50,513 bases of DNA from Pseudomonadota bacterium (GTDB lineage: Bacteria; Pseudomonadota; Gammaproteobacteria; Burkholderiales; UBA11063): NCBI GenBank assembly GCA_003962985.1, contig RXKA01000038.1, forward strand, positions 1-50,513, in the 5' to 3' direction. The notes beneath the pieces are model-generated. The model did no database searches. It had not been told where the DNA came from and saw only the letters and a program-made list of their open reading frames with translations. The translations under genes were made by a program, and so were the position numbers. The stretch's first letter is position 1, and every line of letters starts with the position of its first letter. Below are positions 29,479 to 49,688 of this stretch, piece by piece.

Positions 29479-30870
29479 CTAATTTTGGAGCATTGAGTTT
29501 TGTGGATTAAATAAAACCTGATTGCCGATAACTCTGAAAGTTAAAATTTGATATGGTTTATTCAATTGAATTTCTTTAGTGTACGTAACACCATTCACTA
29601 CAACTTTGATTGTATGCGTACCATAAGCTAAAGTTTGACGATTAATATTAATCTGACCTGGTAATAATGCCCAACTACGTTCATCTGCTCTATCTAATAA
29701 TGCACCACCGACACTAGTACCAACACTTAGTAAAGTCCCAAGTCCACCACCTGTTGAACATGCAGCTTGAGAAGTTGCAATATTCCGTACTGCTGCAGCT
29801 ACATTACGGGTAATAATATATGAAGTATTATCTTTGATAGCGCGTGCTGCCATTAAGTTTGTATTTACCATTGGGAGTGGTTGAACGATGCTATTGTCTA
29901 GTGTATAACTATAGGTTGCTTGATTTGTCTTATCGATGATCAAAGATGGATAAAATACATTAATCATATTAACACATGAATTTTTTGTACCAACTAGGTT
30001 TAAATCAATCGGAACATGAACTTCATTCGACTTAATTTGTGGCGCATGACCTGTTTCTTCAACAATTAATAAATCAGTATATCCAGTTTTTGGACGTACT
30101 TTCTTATCAATGTTAGTGATGCTTTGCTGAATTAATTTATTAGTAGGATTTAACTGTCCAGCTTTAACGTATCCAGGTCTAGCCAATGATGGTTCGCCCA
30201 AAGCTTCAAAAATAAAACCAGCTAAATAATGTCCAAATGCATTTTGATAACTATTTTTAAGTGCTAAAACTTCAGGGCTATTAACATCTTTGAAATCAAA
30301 GTTCTTAACTATTTGTTTAGTCAAATAATCTTCAGTTTTATCTTTACTTTGCTTTTGCGCATCTGCGGATGCCTGATTGTAGAGGTATTGATTATAGTTT
30401 TGAATAGCTTGCTCAATCTGGTACATACGTTTAATCTCAATTCGAGCGTTGTCCAAATTATCCAAATCAACATGATTAAGTGCATGATATGTAGTCAAGA
30501 ATGATTTCTCATAACCACGAGGCTCATAATCATTTACATTATCATTAAGTAACATAGCCGTTGCACTAGTGCTAACTTTACCTGCTGTTGTATTTGCCCA
30601 ACTAGCAGCCCATGTATCAATACTTGATTGTGCACGAGTAAAATACAAATTGCTTGATTCATAGCGTTGATTCATCCTTAGCAATGAACCGTATTCCATA
30701 TTAAACAATACATCTGTTGTACTTTCTGCTTCCATTGCAGTGCCCAAATTACCAGAATAAATATTATTTAATCGAGCATCTGTCTTGCTCTTATAAGAGC
30801 TAACTGGATTATTTGCACACCCTACCAAAGAAGTAATTAATGCGGATAAAATTAATGTTTTATGTTTCAT
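29479..30870 (-). CDS. COG3014-like lipoprotein with TPR-like helices
   Basis: A 463-residue outer-membrane lipoprotein with the lipobox LVGC at residue 18. The N-terminal half is rich in helical repeats (LLRMNQRYESSNLYFTRAQSSID; FGHYLAGFIFEALGEPSLARPGYVKAGQLNP), as in TPR proteins. The C-terminal part has beta-rich segments and a Gly-rich stretch (STGGGLGTLLSVGTSVGGALL). This layout matches the COG3014 family usually encoded beside LpoB-like proteins. GGAG precedes the ATG. It is the first gene of the eight-gene unit; its promoter carries the CAYACT palindrome. Confidence 0.7.
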   Translation of the reverse strand: MKHKTLILSALITSLVGCANNPVSSYKSKTDARLNNIYSGNLGTAMEAESTTDVLFNMEYGSLLRMNQRYESSNLYFTRAQSSIDTWAASWANTTAGKVSTSATAMLLNDNVNDYEPRGYEKSFLTTYHALNHVDLDNLDNARIEIKRMYQIEQAIQNYNQYLYNQASADAQKQSKDKTEDYLTKQIVKNFDFKDVNSPEVLALKNSYQNAFGHYLAGFIFEALGEPSLARPGYVKAGQLNPTNKLIQQSITNIDKKVRPKTGYTDLLIVEETGHAPQIKSNEVHVPIDLNLVGTKNSCVNMINVFYPSLIIDKTNQATYSYTLDNSIVQPLPMVNTNLMAARAIKDNTSYIITRNVAAAVRNIATSQAACSTGGGLGTLLSVGTSVGGALLDRADERSWALLPGQININRQTLAYGTHTIKVVVNGVTYTKEIQLNKPYQILTFRVIGNQVLFNPQNSMLQN

Positions 30871-31135: not shown

Positions 31136-31470
31136 AAAGTATTAATTTAATTTTATTCCTTAATCCAAATATCCAATATTACGAATAACACATAAAAAAT
31201 ATACAAGTTTTACTTTAAAAAGTAATTGACTGACTTCTAAATATGCAAACATAAAGTAGTTGATCACTACTACTTAAATTATAGTAGACAAAATACAACA
31301 CCTAAGGCAAGTAAATCCACATAAAAAGCTTATATAGTAATATTTATCTACTTGACGTAATTAGCCACTTCATATATAATTTTTGAGAAAGTATACATTT
31401 AAGTTAAGAATAAGTACTAAATACATACAGCATTAAATGAATATAACCAATATATTTTAGAAAGCGCACC

Positions 31471-31731: not shown

Positions 31732-33498
31732 TCACAGTAAAACTTGGGTTTCCTGTTCACAAAATAAGTCATCATAATGTTTAAAGCGCAGATAATTATC
31801 CAATACCTCAACATTAATATCTTTGCCACAAGTATTACAGTGCCAACTGAAATCAGGAAATACAAAATAGATCAGTTCAAAAATATTGCGCACTGCTACA
31901 ATATTAATCAGGTTTTGATATTCGTAGTATATGGCTTCAGAATTAGCTGCACTTACATAAACAGTACTTAAATTAGCCTCAATGCAACCTTGAATTTTTT
32001 CATTAATCATACCCACTGCAGTAATTGAACCATCCAATTCAATACAACCACTAAAAGCTAAACTATTACTTAATGGTAATCGCAAAAGTTCTGATAACAT
32101 TGTAATAAAATACACCATGCCAGCCGAACCTCCATCATGCTGCGAGTCTAATTCATGATGACTAATGATTATATCATTGGTACGCAATACTGATTCTTGA
32201 TCGCCAAGAAATAAGCGACTATGAATCTTAATTAGACTGAATGCTACCTTAATTGATTCACGAACCGCACCGCTAACCTGCCCAAGAATATCGATTTGAC
32301 CACTGCCTGCTGATAACCGAGCAGTAACAAAATTTAACATACCTCGCCGAGATTGTTTATTACCATAAACGGCAATAGCATACGCAGTACCAATCAATTG
32401 AATATTGCGTGGTACAACTTTGATATCATTAGCTGCCTGATATTTCTCCATTACTTGAGGAAAATTACGCATTATCCATTGACAATCAATATTGAGATTT
32501 TTTAATTTATGTTGCTCTAAATAATATAATCCTTTATTGATTACTTGAGTGGTGAAACTCTTAATTTCGCGTACCCCACTAATTGGTTCTTTGCTAACTG
32601 AATCAATTGACTTATAGTCAACGATAGTTTGGCATGCATCATAACTAAAGTGCAAAGGAAAATCTGGCTTATAGTCACGAAGAATGGTTGGCAACAAATA
32701 CTTATGTAAGATTGCAACTTTCTCCTCTGGCTCATAATCCTCAACTTTCACCATAACCAATCGTGAACGTAATGGTTGAGATATCTTTTCAGGATCATTA
32801 GCCGTAAATAAAAACGAAACCTTGGAGATATCAATCCCTGTATCCAAAAATAAATCGTGAAATGACTTATTTAAAACAGGATCACAAATTGATAATAAAG
32901 CTGACTCCATCGAACCATGCACATCATCAGTATTCATTTTATCTAATTCATCGAATACGATTATGGGATTCATGCATTTACTATCCATCAGACTACGCAC
33001 CAAATCACCATATGACGCAGAACGATAGCCACGCTCTTGACCAATCAAACTAAAGGAATGCCGTCCAGGAAGAGATATCAATACGAATTCAGCATCTAAT
33101 GCTTTGGCTAAACTATGACAAAAACTAGATTTACCAATTCCAGGTTTACCATAAAAACAGAAATATGGTAACTTATGATTATTAATCTTGTATTTACTCG
33201 CGAGTAAATGTTCAATGATGGAATCTTTCACGCGATGAAAGCCATAATGATACTTATCTAATAATTCGCGGACTTGATGACAATCTTGATTATATGGTTT
33301 GTAAACACCATAGGGAATACGCGTCAACGCATTGATAATATTTTTTGATTGTTCACTGCGCAAGCGAGCTTCGGGTTCATCTGCCCCAATTTGCTCAATA
33401 CGTTGCTTAATAGTGTTTGGAAGATTTGCGGGAATGTTTTTACGTAGATCGTTGATATCTAAATCTTGTAACGCAAATGAAGTTTTTCTTGCTACCAT
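31732..33498 (-). CDS. Lon-like ATP-dependent protease lacking the N-terminal LON domain
   Basis: A 588-residue AAA+ protease. From the ATG at 33498 (AGGAG upstream): Walker A YGKPGIGKSS near 117-124, Walker B IIVFDELDK near 178-185, then the Lon-type small domain (GVREIKSFTTQVINKGL). The peptidase domain holds the Ser in DGGSAGM (S458) and the Lys in INEKIQG (K501). The 43-residue spacing equals S679/K722 of E. coli Lon. The normal ~300-residue N-terminal substrate-binding region is reduced to about 110 residues. An added C-terminus with a CNTCGK pair could bind metal. It has its own strong promoter and lies next to an IS remnant. Confidence 0.8.
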   Translation of the reverse strand: MVARKTSFALQDLDINDLRKNIPANLPNTIKQRIEQIGADEPEARLRSEQSKNIINALTRIPYGVYKPYNQDCHQVRELLDKYHYGFHRVKDSIIEHLLASKYKINNHKLPYFCFYGKPGIGKSSFCHSLAKALDAEFVLISLPGRHSFSLIGQERGYRSASYGDLVRSLMDSKCMNPIIVFDELDKMNTDDVHGSMESALLSICDPVLNKSFHDLFLDTGIDISKVSFLFTANDPEKISQPLRSRLVMVKVEDYEPEEKVAILHKYLLPTILRDYKPDFPLHFSYDACQTIVDYKSIDSVSKEPISGVREIKSFTTQVINKGLYYLEQHKLKNLNIDCQWIMRNFPQVMEKYQAANDIKVVPRNIQLIGTAYAIAVYGNKQSRRGMLNFVTARLSAGSGQIDILGQVSGAVRESIKVAFSLIKIHSRLFLGDQESVLRTNDIIISHHELDSQHDGGSAGMVYFITMLSELLRLPLSNSLAFSGCIELDGSITAVGMINEKIQGCIEANLSTVYVSAANSEAIYYEYQNLINIVAVRNIFELIYFVFPDFSWHCNTCGKDINVEVLDNYLRFKHYDDLFCEQETQVLL

Positions 33499-33561
33499 TA
33501 CTTTTCTCCTTAAAATATTTATCATATTTTTTAGAGAGTTTTTTTTAATATCCAGATAATT

Positions 33562-34140: not shown

Positions 34141-34449
34141 TCAAATTAATATAGCAATTCCTTTTTCTTCTATTAAGTTCAATAGTTTCAAAGCTGCACC
34201 ACTTGGCTTTTTAACTCCTCTTTCCCATTGTGCAATTGTTGAAGGACTGATATTCAAGTATCTTGCCAAGATTGATTGACTAACATGTTCTTTATCTCTC
34301 AACATTCTGATTTCCTCAGGCGAAAACTCTTTGATGTCTTTTAGACATAATTTATCAAAAGTCTTCATTGTTTGCTTATCTGCTATACCAAGCTCATGAA
34401 TTCTTTTCATTGAACTATGAATTTCATTTAATGTTCTACTTTGTTTCAT
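34141..34449 (-). CDS. HigA/NadS-type antitoxin, XRE helix-turn-helix
   Basis: A 102-residue antitoxin/autorepressor. The HTH is at about 55-95: EIRMLRDKEHVSQSILARYLNISPSTIAQWERGVKKPSGAALKLLNLIEEKG, a close match to antitoxins paired with RelE/HigB-like toxins. It overlaps the 3' end of the toxin gene by 14 bases, in the toxin-first order usual for HigBA. The toxin gene is broken, so this is now a lone antitoxin that may still bind its own promoter. Confidence 0.85.
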   Translation of the reverse strand: MKQSRTLNEIHSSMKRIHELGIADKQTMKTFDKLCLKDIKEFSPEEIRMLRDKEHVSQSILARYLNISPSTIAQWERGVKKPSGAALKLLNLIEEKGIAILI

Positions 34450-34813
34450 TTTTTACCTCATACAATTCTTTATTTTCTAATAAATTATCAATTTCAGATT
34501 TAGATAATCCCATTAAAAATTTAGCATAACCTTGTATCGCAATTAATTCTTGACTTTCAATATTATCTCGTTCATTTTTGGCAAATCCAATAATGAACAC
34601 CCACATACCATTATAATTAGAAGCTAAGATAGTTCGATAACTCCCACTTTTCTCAAATCCTTGTCGAGCAACTCTTTTTTTGAAAACTCCACCACCAAGA
34701 TTAGCATCGACCAAGCCAGATTAGATTTCTTGGATTGCTTTTAGTAGCAAATTATCTCCAACTGAGGATTTCTTTTGCCACTTACTAAATGTTGCTGTTT
34801 TATATATACTTAT
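34436..34813 (-). pseudogene. RelE/HigB-type toxin gene with an in-frame stop
   Basis: The downstream 92 codons read LVDANLGGGVFKKRVARQG..SGSYRTILASNY..WVFIIGFAKNERDNI, the conserved body of a RelE-like (HigB-type) toxin. Upstream in the same frame the expected first part is present (YKTATFSKWQKKSSVGDNLLLKAIQEI), but a TAA at 34721-34723 interrupts it where family members have a glutamate (E-x-G-L), so a single GAA to TAA change is likely. The expected start is ATA (34811-34813) instead of ATG. Together this indicates inactivation; a restart at TTG (34714) would lack the N-terminal helix. Confidence 0.75.
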
Positions 34814-38064: not shown

Positions 38065-38087
38065 TTGCGTACATCACTAAACTTAAT
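38046..38087 (+). terminator. long inverted repeat ending the XRE gene
   Basis: ATTAAGTTTAG (38046-38056) / CTAAACTTAAT (38077-38087), with an inner ATGTA / TACAT stem, followed on the plus strand by ATTTATATTTT. It overlaps the 3' ends of the two convergent genes and probably acts as terminator for the XRE gene. Confidence 0.55.
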
Positions 38088-39120
38088 ATTTATATTTTAC
38101 TAATGTAAATGGTGGTGTAAGAAATCCATCCTGCGCCACCTGTGCATTAGCAAATAAATAGCCACTCCCATGAGTAATTGACATACAAACACCAGCTATA
38201 CCATCATGAGATAATGATGTCCATGGTGTAGCACTAGTTGCATCCAATCTGATTTGTTGAACTGGATTGCTTAGAACACTACCACAAGTATACAAATAAT
38301 CACCCTGAATCGTAAAATCATAAGGTGAAGAAGCACTACTTACCCAATCTTGTAAATCAGTTCCCAATAAAGATGATTTAACAAAACTTCCTGAGATAGA
38401 ATAATATGAGTAACGTTTTCCAAGTATATTTATTTCTGAAACATCAGATGATTTAAACCCTTGGCTAACTGCACTAATCGTAACAGCACCACCATCAGGA
38501 GATACACTCATAGCAGATTCGCTATAAATATTATATGGCGTTGCAAACCAATATAACTTACCACCATAATAATTAAAACCACCTACGCTACTTCTTGGTT
38601 CAATAGGCTTTTCAACATAATTACTACCATCAAAGTAATTCTCATAAATCTTACTAGCTTTGGTAACAGCACGACTAGCCATATTAATGGTATAAATAAA
38701 ATTAGGATGTGGGAGAGATGTATTATTATCAACTCCAAATACATAAAGATTGCCATTTGAATCACTGGTAACCTTTGACACGCTAACATCAGCCAAACCC
38801 GTCACAGTAGTACAACTCCATGGAGTAGTACTGGAAGCATCAGCTCCAATAGAGCATAATTGTGTTGTACCATACAGCAAATTATTAAGCAAATAAACTG
38901 AATTAGTAGCTTTATCATAAAATATAGGTAGCGCTGCAAATACTTGATTTGCAAACGGTGCTCCAACTTGTACCCATTTACCATTAGTATTTGGCGTTGG
39001 TGTAGGCGCTGGTGTTGGATCACCACCATTATTTGATGGTGAAGAACCGCCTCCACTATTACAAGCAACCAAAGCCGTTGCACCTAATAGAGCCATTAAT
39101 AATACTGATATCTTTTTCAT
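38083..39120 (-). CDS. lipoprotein, MKKISVLLM signal family, possible beta-propeller
   Basis: A 345-residue lipoprotein with the signal MKKISVLLMALLGATALVAC (Cys20), then a Gly/Ser and Pro-Thr linker. The mature part has recurring motifs such as YDKATNSVYLLNN, SDSNGNLYVFGV, YGGKLYWFAT and GDYLYTCG, which resemble blades of a beta-propeller/Kelch-like repeat. The signal is almost the same as that of two neighbours, but the mature part is not. Second gene of the unit starting at 40174; its upstream AAGGTGT leader is shared with the gene at 41549. Function unknown. Confidence 0.7.
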   Translation of the reverse strand: MKKISVLLMALLGATALVACNSGGGSSPSNNGGDPTPAPTPTPNTNGKWVQVGAPFANQVFAALPIFYDKATNSVYLLNNLLYGTTQLCSIGADASSTTPWSCTTVTGLADVSVSKVTSDSNGNLYVFGVDNNTSLPHPNFIYTINMASRAVTKASKIYENYFDGSNYVEKPIEPRSSVGGFNYYGGKLYWFATPYNIYSESAMSVSPDGGAVTISAVSQGFKSSDVSEINILGKRYSYYSISGSFVKSSLLGTDLQDWVSSASSPYDFTIQGDYLYTCGSVLSNPVQQIRLDATSATPWTSLSHDGIAGVCMSITHGSGYLFANAQVAQDGFLTPPFTLVKYKY

Positions 39121-39159
39121 CTACACACCTTACTAGAATTTCATTGATTAACCTAATCC

Positions 39160-39187
39160 AGCTAATAGCTCGTCAAAACTATCAGCT
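39160..39187 (-). repeat. hairpin AGCTAATAG / CTATCAGCT between two lipoprotein genes
   Basis: 9-bp stem with one G-T pair. A related hairpin lies at 41924-41952 in the same place, after a paralogous lipoprotein. With no T run, it may be an intercistronic processing site or weak terminator. Confidence 0.5.
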
Positions 39188-39211
39188 GTTATTGAACTAA
39201 AATTATTAACC

Positions 39212-40174
39212 TTATCGCGCTAAACCGATTGCTTTCATAGCTGACTTATTAGCCGACTGACCTTGATATAAAGGATAAGGCAAGGTTTGCGATGAGCTAA
39301 TATAAGTTAATCTTTCTGTTGCAATTAAGCCTGATGCCAATTGTGCTCCAGCACAATCATCCCACTGATAAAAACTAACGTTAGCAGAGAATGTATTATT
39401 CTTCCACATAGCATTAAAGTAATGACCATCCGAAGGTAATGGTGCGGTATTAACTGGTGGTGAAGGATAACAGCCATCTAAAGGATTACAAGAATAATTA
39501 CCATTACTAGTAATAACCACTGTTGAGCCAGCTATAGCCTCTTTATAATGCATCCCAGAACAACTAGTTGGTAAATTATCATCAGGAACAACATAGGTAG
39601 TATTATTGGCATAAGTACCATATGGTAATTGTACCTCGGTTGGTTGTTGATAATTATTAATCACATGAATCACAAAGTCAGGATCACCACCACCAACAAT
39701 AGTACCTATTACTTCATACTTACCAGCTGGTGCACCATTTGGTGAAATTGTCAAAGTACATAAATAATTACCATTTGCATCTGGGAATCGGCATTGATTT
39801 GCAGGTAGACCTGCGGATGTTGTACTGGTAAATTCAGGTTTCGGATTGCTATCTGGTTTAATTGTAAAATTCATGGTAAATGGTGTCGTTACTCCATTAC
39901 TTTCTACATAAAATGATATTTCATAACTATCTTTGTTTGAGATATACAAATCAGTAAATCCTGACAAAACAGGCGACTCTACAGCGCTACCTAAGTTAGT
40001 ATTACCCAATTGTCTTGGTAAAGCTGCAAGAGGAATAGTTTTATTATATGAAGATGCAGCGTTTGGCGCGCCAACACCTGAAGAACCACCACCATTACCG
40101 CTGCTGCCACTACCACAAGCAACCAAAGCAGTCGCCCCAAATAGACTCATTAATAATACTGATATTTTTTTCAT
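39212..40174 (-). CDS. lipoprotein, MKKISVLLM signal family, Cys-rich
   Basis: A 320-residue lipoprotein. The start at 40174 has AAGGAG 7 nt upstream; the longer frame begins inside that ribosome site. Signal MKKISVLLMSLFGATALVAC (Cys20) then a Gly/Ser-rich spacer. The mature part has an Ig-like N-terminal portion (YISNKDSYEISFYVESNGVTTPFTMNF) and a Cys-rich C-terminal part (SCSGMH, YSCNPLDGCYP, WDDCAGA), presumably disulfide-bonded. Its upstream 35 bases are nearly the same as those of the gene at 41984. First gene of the unit driven by the promoter block at 40461-40849. Confidence 0.7.
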   Translation of the reverse strand: MKKISVLLMSLFGATALVACGSGSSGNGGGSSGVGAPNAASSYNKTIPLAALPRQLGNTNLGSAVESPVLSGFTDLYISNKDSYEISFYVESNGVTTPFTMNFTIKPDSNPKPEFTSTTSAGLPANQCRFPDANGNYLCTLTISPNGAPAGKYEVIGTIVGGGDPDFVIHVINNYQQPTEVQLPYGTYANNTTYVVPDDNLPTSCSGMHYKEAIAGSTVVITSNGNYSCNPLDGCYPSPPVNTAPLPSDGHYFNAMWKNNTFSANVSFYQWDDCAGAQLASGLIATERLTYISSSQTLPYPLYQGQSANKSAMKAIGLAR

Positions 40175-40480
40175 ACAAGACTCCTTCTCCATTTTAAATT
40201 ATTTAATTGCTTCAAATTATCACGAATATCAATCAATAGATAAACTACGAATGCGACTATAACGACACCAACTACACCACAAATTCTCCAGCTGATTACA
40301 AATTTGTTGACCGACCATCAATGGTTTTCATTAAAACAATTGTAATTATTCTGGATTAAATTCAAATATAAGTAAGATTAGATTCAGCATGTTGACTCTA
40401 AAATAATGAATATTTAATAAGATAATTTGTCACATGGATAATAAATTGTTAGACTTGAATTTTTATTTCGCATAGTCGTA

Positions 40481-40509
40481 ATTATATCATTTCATCCCAC
40501 AACAGTATG
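40481..40509 (-). promoter_or_regulatory. promoter/operator in duplicated block, copy 1
   Basis: Minus strand CATACT (40504-40509), 17-nt spacer, TATAAT (40481-40486). The palindrome CCCACA-AC-AGTATG (40496-40509) overlaps the -35, and a second, CATACA-AC-AATGTT (40519-40532), lies 23 bp upstream. CATACT is a poor -35, so an activator or an alternative sigma factor may be needed. Confidence 0.5.
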
Positions 40510-40821
40510 AATTACAATCATACAACAATGTTAATTAATTACAACAAGTAGAATAAATTTAGCCAACGTAGTAGTCAAAGTTTAGGATATGTATTAAGTG
40601 GTAATTAAGAATTTATTGAATAAACTAACAGCAAAATATCACAATTGATGCACAGTAACCTAATCATCAAATAAATTAAGTAATTCAAAATAATAGACAA
40701 CATTCAACTAAATTAAAATCTGATTAGTGAATGGAGTAACAGATCCTGATATGATAAAAAGAGGTCGCGAAAAAATGAGATGAGTTCCACTATAAAAGTG
40801 ATACAAAACACAACAAAAAAA

Positions 40822-40849
40822 GCCTGATGTTAAATACAACACATCAGGC
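40822..40849 (-). terminator. terminator of the 41984-40887 operon
   Basis: GCCTGATG (40822-40829) / CATCAGGC (40842-40849), 8-bp GC-rich stem, followed on the minus strand by TTTTTTTGTTG. It lies 38 nt after the stop of the gene at 40887. Confidence 0.85.
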
Positions 40850-40886
40850 AAGGAATACATTTCAAATCTAATTAATATCTGCTAGA

Positions 40887-41549
40887 TTAACCGCCTGTCG
40901 CGGTTGAAATAACCATCTGGGCATCTGGAGTTGTCATATCCTTTGTATTCCATTTATAAGTACCGATTAATCCCCAATATGGTTTACTATCAGAATTGGT
41001 TGATATAACTTTTCCATCTGTTTTGATACTCAGCTTACCATTATAAGCATGATTACCATACATCTCTAATGCATAACGGTCTGCTTTAGTTTTGCTATTA
41101 ATTATAATTTGCTTAGATTTGACATCATACTTAAAATCAACTGGAATATAAAAACCATCACCTTGCGCAGAACCAATTGTGGCATTAAATTCCTTCTCTT
41201 GAATTATATTACCAGTATATTTTAAAGTTAGGTGACCTTTGCATTCACCCAAATATTTACTGCTTATAATATGTTTTCCATTCTTAGCATCAAGAGCTAC
41301 TACATCATTAAACTCTTTCTCACAACCAGCTAATAATTTTTTTAAATCTTGCTCTGGTATAGGTTTATTTTTAACTTTGGACTCGTTTTTAAAGGCTAAA
41401 AAATATCCACCCACGACATCAGTATCAACATCAACCTGATATTGACCAGTACGACTAATTTGTACCTGATTATCATAATTTTGTGGTGCGTAACAACCAG
41501 ATAAACTGGTAACAAGCAGAGCAACTATTAAACTATAACGTTTTTTCAT
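40887..41549 (-). CDS. lipoprotein of unknown function
   Basis: A 220-residue lipoprotein with lipobox LSGC (Cys19). The mature part is beta-rich and polar (GQYQVDVDTDVVGGYFLAFKN; KYLGECKGHLTLKYTGNIIQEKEF; YGNHAYNGKLSIKTDGKV) with two cysteines that may pair. Its ATG overlaps the stop of the 110-residue lipoprotein gene by one base (TAATG), so they are coupled. No family recognised. A terminator follows. Confidence 0.65.
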   Translation of the reverse strand: MKKRYSLIVALLVTSLSGCYAPQNYDNQVQISRTGQYQVDVDTDVVGGYFLAFKNESKVKNKPIPEQDLKKLLAGCEKEFNDVVALDAKNGKHIISSKYLGECKGHLTLKYTGNIIQEKEFNATIGSAQGDGFYIPVDFKYDVKSKQIIINSKTKADRYALEMYGNHAYNGKLSIKTDGKVISTNSDSKPYWGLIGTYKWNTKDMTTPDAQMVISTATGG

Positions 41550-41881
41550 TATTTTTGCTCCCCTGTAACTTTTTTAAAGCTAATTTTATTATCAAATAAT
41601 CCATTAGTAGATAACTCTGACTTCTGTTCATCTAAAATGAAAGTTGTCCCATCAACTATTAAATTATCACCTTGAATTGTCACTACAATGGTATTTGATT
41701 CGCCACTAGCTTGCAATAACAAACCACTCTCCGATTTACTTACCGTAAATGATGTATTTGCATCATTTATATCTTGCCATGTTCCAACAAATTTACTTTC
41801 TGTACTTTTACCACATGAAGTAAGAAAAATCATTATACCCACAAGAATAATGACACTAACAAATATTGAAATTCTTTTCAT
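41549..41881 (-). CDS. small lipoprotein, lipocalin-like WxD repeat type
   Basis: A 110-residue lipoprotein with lipobox LTSC (Cys23). The mature part begins KFVGTWQDINDANTSFTVSKS.. and continues with GDNLIVDGTTFILDEQKSEL, the pattern of small beta-barrel 'GTW' lipocalin-like domains in lipoproteins. AAGGTGT precedes the ATG; this leader is shared with the gene at 38083. Coupled to the gene downstream. Function unknown. Confidence 0.6.
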   Translation of the reverse strand: MKRISIFVSVIILVGIMIFLTSCGKSTESKFVGTWQDINDANTSFTVSKSESGLLLQASGESNTIVVTIQGDNLIVDGTTFILDEQKSELSTNGLFDNKISFKKVTGEQK

Positions 41882-41923
41882 CCATACACCTTATTAAAAT
41901 TTCATTAATGAATTATTTAATAG

Positions 41924-41952
41924 AGCTAATAGTTCATCAAAAACTATTAGCT
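41924..41952 (-). repeat. hairpin AGCTAATAGTT / AACTATTAGCT between lipoprotein genes
   Basis: 11-bp perfect stem, 7-nt loop, 32 nt after the stop of the gene at 41984. Paralogous to the hairpin at 39160-39187. No strong T run on the minus strand. Confidence 0.55.
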
Positions 41953-41983
41953 ACCATTTATATAATGTATAAAATAATAGATC

Positions 41984-43378
41984 TTACTGATAAATACAAG
42001 TACTATTAGCTAAATTACAGCTAACCGCACCAAAAGTGTCAAAAGTTCCATAAATACCACCAGACGAATTTACAATTGTAGTATATGCAGGCAAGCTATA
42101 TGAATAAACTGATGGTTCGCTCGTAATAAATGAATGATTACCATTTACATTCTCATATTCAAAAGCTGTGCCAGCTGGAAAAACATCAATAATGATATTA
42201 AAATTATCATCTGTTGTATTAGAACGACTAAACCAATGAGCCGCAAGAGGTATTTGAATTGTTGAAATACTACCAAAAGCATTTACTTTGGAGAAATCAA
42301 CTAAAATATCTTCTGTTGCCAAACCTTGTTTTTGACCAGAAATGGTATCACCCGCCCACGCCATAAATGTATCTGGGCTAGTTAATGCATTTTCTGGAGA
42401 TGATCCTGACATCATGCCATAATAACCAATATTTTGATAACCAAACCCAAATCCTAAAAATTCATTATTTACCGCAGCAAAATTACCAGCTCCAATAAAA
42501 CCTGTTTTAGTATCCAAATCACGATTATTAGAGGTATAACCAACAGGGCTTGGATTTTGCCACTGATAGCGAATACGAATAAATCCATTACGAGTATTTA
42601 TATTATTGATTGGATAACCAAATGCCTCAATATTGATATCATATGTTGCAGAAGTGTTGTCAGAATAATTAATGGTCAGAGAATTATTAGAGGATGCAAC
42701 CTGAGTGCTATAAAGTTGCTTGGTTTGTGTAACGCTAGGAACCGTCGGAGAGATTGTAACACTACAATTGCCATTAGAAACAATAGCCTTACCAGTACAA
42801 TTATCATTAATAATTGAGAAACCTGAGGTTGGAGTTAAGCTGCTTATTGTCTTCGCACTTGGATTAGTATTAGTAAACTCTAACGTAGTTGTACCATAAA
42901 TATAATTTGTATTAATTCCAACTCCATCAATAGTTTGCCCAGCAACAATATCGTAATTAAAATTTGTTGTACCAGTAAATTTCTCATTATTGTAATAATA
43001 AGAATAATCAAGTAAATAAGATTTCTCGCCATTTCCAGTTGGCTTTAACAAAAAATTAGTACTACAATTATTAGAATCAGCAGAAATATTGACTGTGTTA
43101 CAATTAAGTGATTCTGCTACACCATTCAAGTTACCATCACTACTAAGTGAAGATAAACTCATAGTAAAACTCTCTATACCAGACATATTCGCAACTGCAT
43201 TAATCATAATTGGAAGATTAGCATTAATACCAGTTTTAATGTCATTCGGAGTAATATCTACCTTAACAGATGGTGAATCTGGCGTTGGTGTCGGTGTAGG
43301 TGTTGGATCACCACCATTACAAGCTACCAAAACCGTAGCCCCAACTATACTCATTAATAATACTGATATTTTTTTCAT
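41984..43378 (-). CDS. lipoprotein, MKKISVLLM signal family, Ig-like domains
   Basis: A 464-residue lipoprotein with the signal MKKISVLLMSIVGATVLVAC (Cys20) and a Thr-Pro linker. The mature part appears to have several beta-sandwich domains; one (TTTLEFTNTNPSAKTISSLTPTSGFSIINDNCTG..SNGNCSVTISPT) looks like the choice-of-anchor/DUF1573-like repeat seen in surface proteins. Ribosome site AAGGAG. Its upstream bases match those of the gene at 39212. It follows two small membrane-protein genes in the same direction. Function unknown. Confidence 0.7.
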   Translation of the reverse strand: MKKISVLLMSIVGATVLVACNGGDPTPTPTPTPDSPSVKVDITPNDIKTGINANLPIMINAVANMSGIESFTMSLSSLSSDGNLNGVAESLNCNTVNISADSNNCSTNFLLKPTGNGEKSYLLDYSYYYNNEKFTGTTNFNYDIVAGQTIDGVGINTNYIYGTTTLEFTNTNPSAKTISSLTPTSGFSIINDNCTGKAIVSNGNCSVTISPTVPSVTQTKQLYSTQVASSNNSLTINYSDNTSATYDINIEAFGYPINNINTRNGFIRIRYQWQNPSPVGYTSNNRDLDTKTGFIGAGNFAAVNNEFLGFGFGYQNIGYYGMMSGSSPENALTSPDTFMAWAGDTISGQKQGLATEDILVDFSKVNAFGSISTIQIPLAAHWFSRSNTTDDNFNIIIDVFPAGTAFEYENVNGNHSFITSEPSVYSYSLPAYTTIVNSSGGIYGTFDTFGAVSCNLANSTCIYQ

Positions 43379-43421
43379 ACAAGGCTCCTTCTCTATTTTA
43401 AATTATTAATTACTAAATTTT

Positions 43422-43805
43422 TTATTTGATATCCGCTGGTTTACCAGTAGCGCCAATAACTAATACGATTATATGTAGTATTGTTGGAATAAATGGAATT
43501 GAACTTAATACTGGTGTCAAATCAAATAGGAGTGCAATAATTGGAAATATAACAATCCATTTTTTACCAATCCAGCCACCACGCATAAAGGAAGCAATAC
43601 AAAGAATGATTAAACAAATAGCGTGTAGCAAGAAAGGAAAATGTGTAAACATTGAAGTACGTCCACCAGATGCCACATCAACCAAACCACCTGCCGCATT
43701 TGCCATTACTGAGTTTGAACCAAAGTATGGTAAAATATAAGTTAATAATGCTACTAAAATATATACCGTCAAAAAGCCACCAGAATTTTTCATTAATTTT
43801 TTCAT
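43422..43805 (-). CDS. small integral membrane protein
   Basis: A 127-residue protein with three to four hydrophobic segments (about 12-26, 57-75, 85-103, 105-120) and short polar loops, e.g. GLVDVASGGRTSMFTHFP. No family recognised. GGAAG precedes the ATG. It lies between the Pmp3-like gene and the lipoprotein gene at 41984, in one direction, so probably cotranscribed. Confidence 0.6.
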   Translation of the reverse strand: MKKLMKNSGGFLTVYILVALLTYILPYFGSNSVMANAAGGLVDVASGGRTSMFTHFPFLLHAICLIILCIASFMRGGWIGKKWIVIFPIIALLFDLTPVLSSIPFIPTILHIIVLVIGATGKPADIK

Positions 43806-43960
43806 ATTTTTCTTCCTAAATATTATAAGTATTTTAATTTAATTACGTATATAGTTAACTTATTGCCAATTGAGCACTTTTATTTAATAATAATTGAATA
43901 ATTACAGTTTATTATGAAATTTTATTGCTTATTTCATATTGAGCTAACTATATACTATAT

Positions 43961-44146
43961 TTAATTGTTATGATTAAGTAATCGTTGTTGATTCTCAAAA
44001 TTTGTAATTGATATAAATGACCAGATAGTCGCAGGTATCCAACCAATTAATGTTATTTGAAGTACTAAACAAATAATTCCTTGAAAGGGCTTGCTCATTG
44101 TAAAAAAAGTCAGCCATGGGAAAAATAAAGCCAAAATATAACGCAT
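43961..44146 (-). CDS. YqaE/Pmp3-family small membrane protein
   Basis: A 61-residue protein with two transmembrane helices. MRYILALFFPWLTFFTMSKPFQGIICLVLQITLIGWIPATIWSFI follows the Pmp3 pattern (ILA-F-P-L..L--LLTLIGWIPG-IH). The family is linked to membrane potential and salt stress. The start at 44146 has GAGGTG 5 nt upstream and matches the family; a frame to 44161 adds five residues without support. First gene after promoter copy 2. Confidence 0.75.
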   Translation of the reverse strand: MRYILALFFPWLTFFTMSKPFQGIICLVLQITLIGWIPATIWSFISITNFENQQRLLNHNN

Positions 44147-44233
44147 ACACACCTCATACAAAAGATATTATTAATAATCATCTGTCATAATAAACCTAAT
44201 TATTTATAGATAATTTTATTTCGCATAGTCGTA

Positions 44234-44262
44234 ATTATAACACCACCTCCCACAACAGTATG
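44234..44262 (-). promoter_or_regulatory. promoter/operator in duplicated block, copy 2
   Basis: Minus strand CATACT (44257-44262), 17-nt spacer, TATAAT (44234-44239) with TGT in front, an extended -10. Palindrome CCCACA-AC-AGTATG at 44249-44262. It should drive the Pmp3-like gene and the lipoprotein genes behind it. Confidence 0.5.
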
Positions 44263-44575
44263 AATTATAATCACACAACAATGTCAATTAATTACAACAA
44301 TCAAAATAAATTTAACCAACGTATCAGTCAAAGTTTAGGATATATATTAAGGGGTAATTAAGGATTTGTTGAATGAACTAACAGCAAAATATCACAATTC
44401 AGGTATGTTAACCTAAGTATAAAATAATCTAAGTAATTCAAAATGATTTAGTTGATTTACCTCAATTAAAACCTGATTAGTGACTGGAGTAACATATCTT
44501 GATATAATAAAAAGAGGTTGTGAGAAAATAAGACGAGTTCCACTATAAAAGTGATACAAAACACAACAAAAAAAA

Positions 44576-44603
44576 GCCTGATGTTAAATACAACACATCA
44601 GGC
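44576..44603 (-). terminator. terminator after the periplasmic protein gene
   Basis: GCCTGATG (44576-44583) / CATCAGGC (44596-44603) followed on the minus strand by TTTTTTTTGTTG. Same hairpin as at 40822-40849. It lies 32 nt past the stop at 44635. Confidence 0.85.
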
Positions 44604-44634
44604 GAGAAATCATTAATATGAATTAAGATTAGAA

Positions 44635-45675
44635 CTAACTACTAACTGCACTTTCAATAGCTTTTACTATAGTTGTGACTTGAGTACTATCTAAATTTAT
44701 GCCACCATCACTAGACATAGCATATGGAATGATTGCTTTATATACTGCCTTGGATTGATTACGGTATGGATAAGCAACAACATTAATTGGAATATAATTA
44801 CCATGTAATTTATAACGATAAGTATTCATAATTTGATCCGTATTTATATCCCATTTCGCCTCAATAAACTCTTCTTGAGCTTTACGCTGCGAATCAGTTA
44901 ATTTAGTGCCAGTTGGTTTACACGTTTTTATATCAAGAGTACTAATTTCCTTACCACTAGTTGCATTGTGTATTATTTTGTCATTCGTATCACATATTGG
45001 AAATTTATGCCAATCATACTTACCCAATAAACGCCCCAAATTACCATGTACACTATCTACCGAATACTGGTTGTCAATCTCACCTTGTGTTAGATGGTAT
45101 TTAGTTAATTCAACTTTATTTGGCTGAATGATACTAATTAAATTATTCCTCAGTTCAATCGGTTGTGCCAAAGGATTATGACGAGTTAAACTCATATTTG
45201 AAGCATTAATTTCTACGGTGTCAGGTACAATCACTTTTGCAACTAAATAAGATTCTTCCTGTATTACTTTAACTGGGAGCGTGAAACTAAGATTATTATA
45301 AATATCACTCTCAACTAATTTAGCGGTTATTGCGCCAGCATCATTTTTTACATTATGGTATTCGACAATAATTTTGTCTTTGCCAATGGTAATATATGTT
45401 CCAGTACGGATAGCACATTTTTCTTCTGAAGACCAACGTGAACAAGGTGCTTTCTTAGCTATAGTTGGATAAGCAGTATTATCTAAAATAACACGGCTTA
45501 AATTCGCCATTATTGTCAATGCATCAACTGGCTGACCATCAAAATCAGTTGCCAAAAACTTATAGCTCAGTGTCGTAGGTTGCACTTCTAACTTTTCACT
45601 ATCTTGATAGTTAGATGCATATGCAAAATTCACTGACATTATTAATGGAAATAAACTCAATATACTTTTTTTCAT
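44635..45675 (-). CDS. exported periplasmic protein of unknown function
   Basis: A 346-residue protein with a signal peptide (MKKSILSLFPLIMSVNFAYA) cut near AYAS. The mature part has four cysteines (PCSRWSSEEKC close to residue 80, ICDTND, KTCKP) and beta-rich stretches (YLVAKVIVPDTVEINASNM). It starts 14 nt after the beta-barrel gene, so the two are likely one operon. No family recognised. A strong terminator follows. Confidence 0.65.
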   Translation of the reverse strand: MKKSILSLFPLIMSVNFAYASNYQDSEKLEVQPTTLSYKFLATDFDGQPVDALTIMANLSRVILDNTAYPTIAKKAPCSRWSSEEKCAIRTGTYITIGKDKIIVEYHNVKNDAGAITAKLVESDIYNNLSFTLPVKVIQEESYLVAKVIVPDTVEINASNMSLTRHNPLAQPIELRNNLISIIQPNKVELTKYHLTQGEIDNQYSVDSVHGNLGRLLGKYDWHKFPICDTNDKIIHNATSGKEISTLDIKTCKPTGTKLTDSQRKAQEEFIEAKWDINTDQIMNTYRYKLHGNYIPINVVAYPYRNQSKAVYKAIIPYAMSSDGGINLDSTQVTTIVKAIESAVSS

Positions 45676-45689
45676 ATACTATTTCTGTC

Positions 45690-46472
45690 CTAGAAGCGGT
45701 AACCTAAGCTAAGTGATAATACGGGATAAAATGGGAATGCGCGTAATCCAGAATCTAAATTATCCGTGAATGTGTTAACTTGATTATTAAAATTATCACA
45801 AGATCCAGCAGATGTTGAATTACATTGTAAATTAGTTGAAACTGTTGCTTTAGCAAGCATTACACCTGCATCAAAATTGATTAGAAAACCTTTTTTATCA
45901 ATAGTACTAGCAGCTTGAGAACCTATACCAATACCTAGATATGGTGAGAAACTTGGGTAATTAATAGAAGCACTACCACTAGCGGTCATCCCATCTCCAA
46001 TATCAATATTATTGCCAGACAATGTCAATGACCGATTATCATAATACATACCACCAGTAAAGCGGAATGAACCACCAAATGGTTTATAGTCCAATAATAA
46101 CCCAAGTGTATTGAATTTCACATTAAACTCATTATTATCAATATCAAACTTGCTGATAGGCAAAAAATTGTATTGTCCGCGAATATCCAGATAATCAGAA
46201 TATAATGCATGTGCTAGATTAATACCAATACCTAGTGTACCACCTTGAACTGAAACACCCCATGCACTCACAAAATCTTGTGATTCTTGTTGATTGGCTA
46301 CCGCTACGGGTGGCGCAATCAAAGTTTCATTATGCGTTATTGTTGAATTTGGTTCAAGTTGGCTATTTACTGTAGTAGTGTTGGCTTCTAACTCTAATGG
46401 TTGGTTGTCATCGGCAAATACCATAGATGACAAAATAATTGAACTTAATGTCGCTAATCTTAATAATCTCAT
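45690..46472 (-). CDS. outer-membrane beta-barrel protein
   Basis: A 260-residue outer-membrane protein. The start at 46472 (MRLLRLATLSSIILSSMVFA) gives a clean signal peptide with AGAGGG upstream; the longer frame begins with GTG at 46493 before that ribosome site. The barrel shows alternating strands (WGVSVQGGTLGIGINLAHAL; DIRGQYNFLPISKFDIDNNEFNVKFN; FRFTGGMYYDNRSL) and ends in LSLSLGYRF, the C-terminal Phe used by BAM. Similar ~230-residue proteins occur in other proteobacteria without known function. First of two genes with 44635. Confidence 0.7.
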   Translation of the reverse strand: MRLLRLATLSSIILSSMVFADDNQPLELEANTTTVNSQLEPNSTITHNETLIAPPVAVANQQESQDFVSAWGVSVQGGTLGIGINLAHALYSDYLDIRGQYNFLPISKFDIDNNEFNVKFNTLGLLLDYKPFGGSFRFTGGMYYDNRSLTLSGNNIDIGDGMTASGSASINYPSFSPYLGIGIGSQAASTIDKKGFLINFDAGVMLAKATVSTNLQCNSTSAGSCDNFNNQVNTFTDNLDSGLRAFPFYPVLSLSLGYRF

Positions 46473-46546
46473 GTTAAATAATCCCTCTCTCACTCACGAT
46501 AAAGGGATATTTTAACACACTAAACCATATATACGCCACAATAAAT

Positions 46547-48851: not shown

Positions 48852-49610
48852 TTACATAAATTTTTCAACAATATCCGTTGAAGATTGCTTACCAATTTTA
48901 TCAAAATGATTTGCTAAAAACTCATCAGCAAGCCTACGTCCACTTTGGAATAAATAATCAATATATTCGGCATCGGTATTTAGTTTACTCGACACACCCA
49001 AACCTTTAACTACACTTTCGGCTTCAATAGTATGAATGTATACCCGTTTATGTTTTTCTGAGCTTAGTTCACCATTGTCAATCAAATCAGTTACAAATTT
49101 AACTGCACGTAATTCACGCATCAAGCTAGAGTTAAAAGATAATGTGTTAATCCGATCCAAAATTTCACGGGCATGTGTTGGTGTTTCTTCAATGTTAACT
49201 GGATTAATTTGCACAATTAAAATATCTTGAGATTTAGTTTCACTAATTAGTGGGAATAATGGCGGATTACCTATATAACCACCATCCCAATAGTCTTCAC
49301 CATCAACCTCAACTGCTTGGAATAAAAACGGTAAGCACGCAGATGCTAAGACTGCATTTAAGCATACATCACTATTTTTAAAGACTCTAAGACGACCATT
49401 GCCAACATTGGTTGCGGCAATAAACAGTTGGCAAACTGAATTGGTATGAAGATAATCAAAATCTATCGTTGATGCTAATACATCACGGAGTGGATTAATA
49501 TTTAATGGGTTTAATTCATATGGTGACATTACTTTGGAAATAATATTGGCATGAAAACTTTTATATCCAACCGAGAGCGCAGAGGAAACCCCTAAGAATA
49601 TTAACTTCAT
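48852..49610 (-). CDS. N-terminally truncated patatin-like phospholipase
   Basis: A 252-residue frame that matches the last two thirds of bacterial patatin-like lipases: SPYELNPLNINPLRDVL..IDFDYL, LFIAATNVGNGRLRVF, AVLASACLPFLFQAVEVDGEDYWDGGYIGNPPLFPL. The catalytic Asp lies in DGGY. The first ~100 residues with the glycine-rich oxyanion loop (GGGxRG) and the nucleophile GxSxG are absent, and the 126 nt up to grpE are too short to hold them. So it is an inactive remnant, or a protein without lipase activity. The start at 49610 has AAGG nearby; a TTG at 49619 is possible. It lies between grpE and dnaK, after a terminator. Confidence 0.75.
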   Translation of the reverse strand: MKLIFLGVSSALSVGYKSFHANIISKVMSPYELNPLNINPLRDVLASTIDFDYLHTNSVCQLFIAATNVGNGRLRVFKNSDVCLNAVLASACLPFLFQAVEVDGEDYWDGGYIGNPPLFPLISETKSQDILIVQINPVNIEETPTHAREILDRINTLSFNSSLMRELRAVKFVTDLIDNGELSSEKHKRVYIHTIEAESVVKGLGVSSKLNTDAEYIDYLFQSGRRLADEFLANHFDKIGKQSSTDIVEKFM

Positions 49611-49688
49611 GATATACAACCTTCTGGATGGTAATGTCTATTTTGTACGTAATGATATCATGAATAGATGGGCGTTAAAAAACTAAAA

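What the first reader, a model, noticed from the sequence alone, without database searches (positions are those of the whole stretch)
40461..44603. Two ~390-bp near-copies of an intergenic terminator-promoter block
40461-40849 and 44214-44603 align along their whole length, including the filler between terminator and promoter, while the flanking proteins are unlike. Each block ends one operon and starts the next. Intergenic DNA conserved while genes diverge is unusual. The filler may hold a small RNA, or the block may be a unit of gene-cassette exchange by homologous recombination. A weak conserved plus-strand promoter (GTGAMT-17-TATRAT near 44480-44505) could make an antisense RNA.
Basis: seen in the sequence. 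Interest (0 to 1): 0.6.

Follow-up and report, generated by a model that had tools for sequence, protein, structure and literature searches.

The report
Duplicated terminator–promoter block between lipoprotein operons
A freshwater bacterium carries two roughly 400-letter copies of the same stretch of control DNA, each ending one gene group and starting the next in a fast-changing lipoprotein gene cluster; it looks like an ordinary local duplication of a switch region rather than a new RNA or mobile element.

Summary
40461-40861 and 44214-44614 are 86.6% identical over 402 columns, along the whole length, and end sharply. They are the only two copies in the genome. None was found in 60 relatives, in the 398 other genomes of the order searched, or in phages or plasmids. 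The genome is most likely a species of Aquella (Neisseriales).

On the coding (minus) strand each block reads: terminator hairpin plus T-run after the upstream gene, about 300 nt, then a consensus extended −10 (TGNTATAAT). Those are the only two such elements on the minus strand of 38-47 kb.

The small-RNA idea is not supported: no Rfam match, coding-strand fold z-scores +0.12 and −0.57, no compensatory change. Cassette exchange is partly supported, in altered form. The third gene after block B and the first after block A share an 86.6% identical leader but have unrelated mature parts; a third leader is a mosaic joined at its start codon.

Most likely: duplication of an operon-boundary control module inside a species-specific lipoprotein island that shuffles modules, working like Borrelia's erp promoter/leader system. 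Ordinary in kind; mildly interesting.

The parts
40461..40861 (-). block A (terminator, about 300 nt, extended -10 promoter), between gene 40887-41549 and gene 39212-40192
   Evidence: blastn 86.6% to block B, E=1.8e-134; only two copies in the genome
44214..44614 (-). block B, between gene 44635-45675 and the Pmp3-like gene 43961-44149
40815..40849 (-). intrinsic terminator A: 9-bp stem GCCTGATGT/ACATCAGGC, 10-nt loop, 7 T (stem-loop 40822-40849)
   Evidence: sequence; folded stem; sequence unique to the two blocks at up to 3 mismatches
44568..44603 (-). intrinsic terminator B, same stem-loop (44576-44603) and T-run
40782..40849 (-). longest stretch without substitution (A side; B side 44535-44603); holds the terminator and a conserved CACTTTTATAGTG inverted repeat
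   Evidence: P=0.0014 under uniform placement; CACT/AGTG pairs also
40481..40489 (-). extended -10 TGATATAAT, block A (predicted start of transcription about 40474)
   Evidence: only two TGNTATAAT on the minus strand of 38-47 kb; expectation 0.029 per 390 nt per strand from 304 kb of the own genome
44234..44242 (-). extended -10 TGTTATAAT, block B; kept although bases around it differ from copy A
40505..40523 (-). inverted repeat GTATGA-N7-TCATAC just upstream of the extended -10 (B: 44258-44276, one arm changed); possible operator, weak
   Evidence: 3 places in the genome; 1 such repeat in A, 0 in B, 1.57 expected in shuffles
44500..44508 (+). plus-strand TGNTATRAT promoter-like site (A: 40747-40755); may be chance
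43311..43419 (-). lipoprotein leader module (5' UTR plus signal peptide) of gene 41984-43378
   Evidence: 86.6% to 40107-40218
40107..40218 (-). lipoprotein leader module of gene 39212-40192
39053..39187 (-). mosaic leader of gene 38083-39120: signal-peptide codons (39053-39120) like the two leaders above, 5' UTR (39101-39187) like that of gene 41549-41881; join at the ATG
41862..41952 (-). leader of gene 41549-41881 that matches the 5' UTR of the mosaic leader (76.9%, 91 columns)
43961..44149 (-). Pmp3/YqaE-type 62-aa membrane protein, first gene after block B
   Evidence: PF01679 E=3e-8, 34.0 bits vs cut-off 22.9

Best explanation
The block is an operon-boundary control module. On the minus strand it carries an intrinsic terminator that ends the upstream transcript, an upstream regulatory stretch of about 300 nt, and an extended -10 promoter that starts the next operon (Pmp3-like gene, 127-aa membrane protein and lipoproteins after B; lipoproteins after A). 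It exists twice because a piece of this species-specific lipoprotein island was duplicated, by local duplication or by recombination of diverged copies, while genes and leaders around it were reshuffled. Both operons would then answer to the same signal. Shown: the two copies, their sharp ends, the terminator sequence, the retained -10, the shared leaders with unrelated mature parts, and absence from the relatives searched. Inferred: that the -10 is used, that the filler binds regulators, that the operons are co-regulated, and the order of events.
For: Whole-length 86.6% identity, E=1.8e-134. Substitutions avoid the terminator side (69-column run, P=0.0014). TGNTATAAT is kept in both copies although neighbouring bases changed, and these are the only two on the minus strand of 38-47 kb. 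Functional orientation relative to both flanking genes. The order block then leader is the same in both halves and both modules diverge equally (86.6% and 86.6%). Mosaic third leader joined at the start codon. The region beside dnaK is different in all 8 relatives inspected: of the 20 window proteins given, only GrpE (6 of 8), DnaK (8 of 8) and 29479-30870 (1 of 8) match there. A 33% homologue of gene 39212-40192 in another genome of the genus (G012) sits behind another gene with an unrelated intergenic of about 175 bp, so block and gene are not obligatorily linked.
Against: If one tandem duplication made both block and leader copies, the DNA between them should match; 40219-40460 vs 43421-44213 is at shuffle level (139 of 300 shuffles as good), so that DNA was replaced or the two modules were copied separately. 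No transcript data. With two copies and no outgroup, constraint cannot be separated cleanly from gene conversion; the binned-variance test is marginal (P=0.048). The putative operator palindrome is within chance and one arm is changed in copy B.
Confidence: 0.66

Rival explanations
1. The filler encodes a regulatory RNA, in two copies (on either strand), and the conservation is that of the RNA.
For: Conserved non-coding DNA of about 300 nt; a conserved plus-strand promoter-like site; slightly stable plus-strand folds, z=-1.50 and -1.91.
Against: No Rfam match; coding-strand folds at shuffle level (z=+0.12, -0.57); no compensatory pair among 76; the plus-strand fold includes the terminator stem; no T-run after the hairpin on the plus strand (sequence).
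Confidence: 0.1
2. The block is a recombination handle: repeated borders let whole lipoprotein operons be exchanged between strains by homologous recombination (cassette swapping).
For: Species-specific island; leader mosaicism joined at the start codon; a 69-column substitution-free run compatible with gene conversion.
Against: Only one genome carries the block, so no alternative cassette is seen between two blocks. At 13.4% divergence, homologous recombination between the copies would be poor except in the near-identical run (established knowledge, recalled). No uptake-sequence-like enrichment of the hairpin sequence in 304 kb.
Confidence: 0.15
3. The block is a non-autonomous mobile element (MITE- or mobile-promoter-like) that inserted twice.
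For: Sharply bounded repeat of constant length at two intergenic sites with non-homologous immediate neighbours.
Against: Only two copies, 3.75 kb apart, same orientation, both placed correctly as terminator and promoter; local-alignment score of one end against the reverse complement of the other only 11 and 12, and no target duplication seen by eye; no relative in phages, plasmids or viral contigs (the last one exact pattern).
Confidence: 0.07

Closest known systems
erp (ospEF/elp) genes and the 'upstream homology box' of Borrelia cp32 prophages
   Same: Conserved promoter and leader DNA in front of lipoprotein genes with diverse mature parts; [quoted passage not shown]
   Different: Here the block includes the terminator of the previous operon; only two copies; on a contig with grpE/dnaK and not a prophage plasmid; in block B the first gene is a Pmp3-like membrane protein and the lipoprotein with the shared leader comes third; no sequence relationship claimed.
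Mobile promoters / 'promoter propagation' (Matus-Garcia 2012; van Passel 2014; seen only as references in PMC8049555 passages; the papers are not held)
   Same: Repeated upstream DNA in front of non-homologous genes within one genome.
   Different: Two copies in one cluster only; no sign of transposition; longer than I recall for that class (recall).
Horizontal regulatory transfer / switched intergenic regions (described in PMC5890482, passages)
   Different: Defined by comparing alleles of one locus between strains; no second strain is available here.

Membership tests
Borrelia erp / upstream homology box | conserved promoter DNA upstream of several lipoprotein operons in one genome | tested here: met
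   two blocks, 86.6% identical
Borrelia erp / upstream homology box | conserved leader polypeptide with diverse mature parts, directly behind the conserved promoter | tested here: inconclusive
   leaders shared, mature parts unrelated, but after block B two genes lie between block and leader
Borrelia erp / upstream homology box | location on cp32-type prophage replicons | tested here: not met
   contig carries grpE/dnaK; block absent from phages and plasmids collections
Structured regulatory RNA family (Rfam) | match at gathering score | tested here: not met
   0 matches in the window
Structured regulatory RNA family (Rfam) | fold more stable than shuffles / covariation | tested here: not met
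   two sequences only, so covariation has little power
MITE or other transposed repeat | terminal inverted repeats and target-site duplication | tested here: not met
   (end scores 11 and 12, no shuffle control; flanks read by eye)
MITE or other transposed repeat | copies dispersed in the genome | tested here: not met
   two copies, 3.75 kb apart, none elsewhere
Neisseriaceae DNA-uptake-sequence terminator | hairpin arm is an over-represented genomic word | tested here: not met
   the 9-nt arm word has 6 counts over both strands in 304 kb, four of them expected from the two hairpins themselves; not among the enriched 10- and 12-mers listed
Integron gene cassette | attC site and integrase | not tested
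   no dedicated search; the family scans covered 18 proteins of the window only
Mobile promoter | empty-site alleles in relatives | not testable with these tools
   no second genome of the species held; relatives lack the surrounding island

The most novel reading that the evidence does not exclude
The block is a terminator-to-promoter 'insulated docking module': repeated operon borders and repeated leader modules together let a free-living freshwater betaproteobacterium swap lipoprotein operons and mature domains while keeping regulation, an erp-like surface-diversification system outside pathogens.
Probability: 0.13. Interest if true: 0.5.

Novelty: new member of a known kind. Interest (0 to 1): 0.22.

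Why it matters
If the shuffling reading holds, it shows modular diversification of lipoproteins (promoter, leader and mature part moving separately) in a tap-water and freshwater lineage with no known host. That would suggest that such systems are a general way to vary the cell surface and not only an immune-evasion trick. As it stands it is a well-documented local duplication of a control region.

Tried and rejected
Small RNA: rejected on folds, Rfam and covariation. Coding filler: no ORF of 60 aa or more lies inside the blocks.

Distant homologues: a sequence-only profile of both copies against 23 genomes of the genus gave the two own copies and weak matches. The best of these, G022:C49:119004-119288 (E=0.004), lies mostly inside a prepilin-like ORF and aligns poorly, so I count it as chance. 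The other five weak matches (E 0.026-0.084) were not inspected. A 41-nt match of B in L048 lies within a 501-aa ORF and scores E=0.061 in nhmmer. Two genome-contig scans found nothing, one an exact 29-nt pattern and one the protein 44635-45675.

Tandem-duplication remnant between block A and its gene: not detectable. DNA-uptake-sequence idea: rejected. Operator palindrome regulon: only three places in the genome; the third (C100:12507) has no TATAAT close behind it. A partial likeness at 31291-31314 to the terminator loop is not a third copy: a profile search of the masked window and the own-genome sample found none. The G002 homologue of the gene upstream of block B ends at a contig end, just before where the block would begin, so that test failed for lack of sequence.

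Full report
WHERE IT IS. The window is contig C152 of a 2.54-Mb, 207-contig genome, 93.7% complete. Same-genus genome G016 is one contig of 2,820,660 bp, the size given for the Aquella oligotrophica P08T chromosome (PMC6612550, abstract and passages). The genus is therefore most likely Aquella (Neisseriales). The genes around the finding are on the minus strand: grpE, a patatin-like fragment, dnaK, then 45690-46493, 44635-45675, block B, a Pmp3-like 62-aa protein (PF01679), a 127-aa membrane protein, lipoproteins 41984-43378, 41549-41881 and 40887-41549, block A, lipoproteins 39212-40192 and 38083-39120. Calling these 'lipoproteins' and 'membrane protein' rests on their signal sequences and hydrophobicity as read from the translations; no curated family names them at its cut-off.

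THE OBSERVATION. The two blocks match over 402 columns at 86.6%, E=1.8e-134, with 51 substitutions and one indel over 393 columns. The likeness covers the filler and stops at both ends. Substitutions are not even: the terminator side has 69 columns without one (P=0.0014), while the overall unevenness is marginal (P=0.048). This fits either constraint on the terminator region or a gene-conversion tract; two copies cannot tell these apart.

ANATOMY. Read on the minus strand, each block begins with a 9-bp stem, a 10-nt loop and a T-run, about 31-37 nt after the stop codon of the preceding gene, and ends with a consensus extended -10, TGNTATAAT. That motif occurs at 0.029 per 390 nt per strand in 304 kb of the own genome, and nowhere else on the minus strand between 38 and 47 kb. 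Several bases just before the TG differ between the copies, yet the TG and TATAAT are kept. A 6+6 inverted repeat just upstream could be an operator, but such repeats are expected by chance (1.57 per shuffle), and copy B has lost one pair of it.

NOT AN RNA, AS FAR AS FOLDING CAN SAY. Coding-strand folds have z=+0.12 and -0.57. Plus-strand folds have z=-1.50 and -1.91 and include the terminator stem. No compensatory change occurs in 76 consensus pairs, though two sequences give little power. Rfam has no match.

DISTRIBUTION. Two copies in the genome by BLAST (ten further matches at E 0.46-0.86 are chance level), by profile and for the terminator at up to 3 mismatches. None in 60 relatives (22 of them of the genus), none in the 398 other genomes of the order searched with block B (a sample that includes only part of the genus), none in the phage and plasmid collections, none by one exact pattern each in genome contigs and viral contigs.

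THE WIDER PATTERN. Leaders are shared between lipoprotein genes whose mature parts are unrelated. 40107-40218 and 43311-43419 are 86.6% identical. The leader of 38083-39120 has signal-peptide codons like those two (84-87% over 68 nt) but a 5' UTR like that of 41549-41881 (77% over 91 columns), joined at the start codon. Thus parts of genes move separately in this cluster, and the duplicated block is one more such part. Block and leader diverge to the same degree, and the order block then leader recurs, which suggests one duplication; but the DNA between them does not match (139 of 300 shuffles as good), so replacement followed or two events occurred. In eight relatives the DNA beside dnaK carries other genes. 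A homologue of 39212-40192 with a related leader (74% over 72 columns) lies in G012 behind a phosphoheptose-isomerase-like gene (name from recall of its sequence), with its own short terminator and intergenic.

COMPARISON. The best functional parallel is the erp system of Borrelia, where conserved promoter/operator and leader DNA precede diverse lipoproteins (PMC10016077, passages). It works like it in part, but is not a member (see membership table). Mobile promoters and horizontal regulatory transfer are the general categories (passages only). Searches for a description of such a block showed none in the titles and abstract starts listed; this is not proof of absence.

VERDICT. Real, non-chance, and most likely an ordinary duplicated operon-boundary control region in a shuffling lipoprotein island.

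Noticed in passing
48852-49619: A 255-aa patatin-like fragment (PF01734, profile 108-190 of 191 only) lies between grpE and dnaK, whereas grpE sits close to dnaK in 6 of 8 relatives inspected.
   Followed up: no
38083-43419: Mosaic lipoprotein leaders: near-identical 5' UTR and signal-peptide DNA in front of unrelated mature proteins, one leader joined from two types at its ATG.
   Followed up: partly
34141-34714: RelE-type toxin (PF06296) with an adjacent HTH protein, a likely toxin-antitoxin pair.
   Followed up: no
43836-43966: Long imperfect inverted repeat (58-nt arms, 71% complementary, 15 nt between) in the intergenic between the 127-aa gene and the Pmp3-like gene.
   Followed up: no
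40203-40345: An open hydrophobic minus-strand frame without a start codon upstream of gene 39212-40192; no likeness to the Pmp3-like or 127-aa proteins (111 and 89 of 500 shuffles as good). Possibly a gene remnant.
   Followed up: partly
31732-33525: AAA plus Lon_C protein (PF00004, PF05362), a Lon-like protease at the edge of the island.
   Followed up: no
L054 (G002:C306) 1-989: Another genome of the genus has 48-50% homologues of 44635-45675 and 45690-46493 in the same order, but its contig ends just before where block B would begin.
   Followed up: partly
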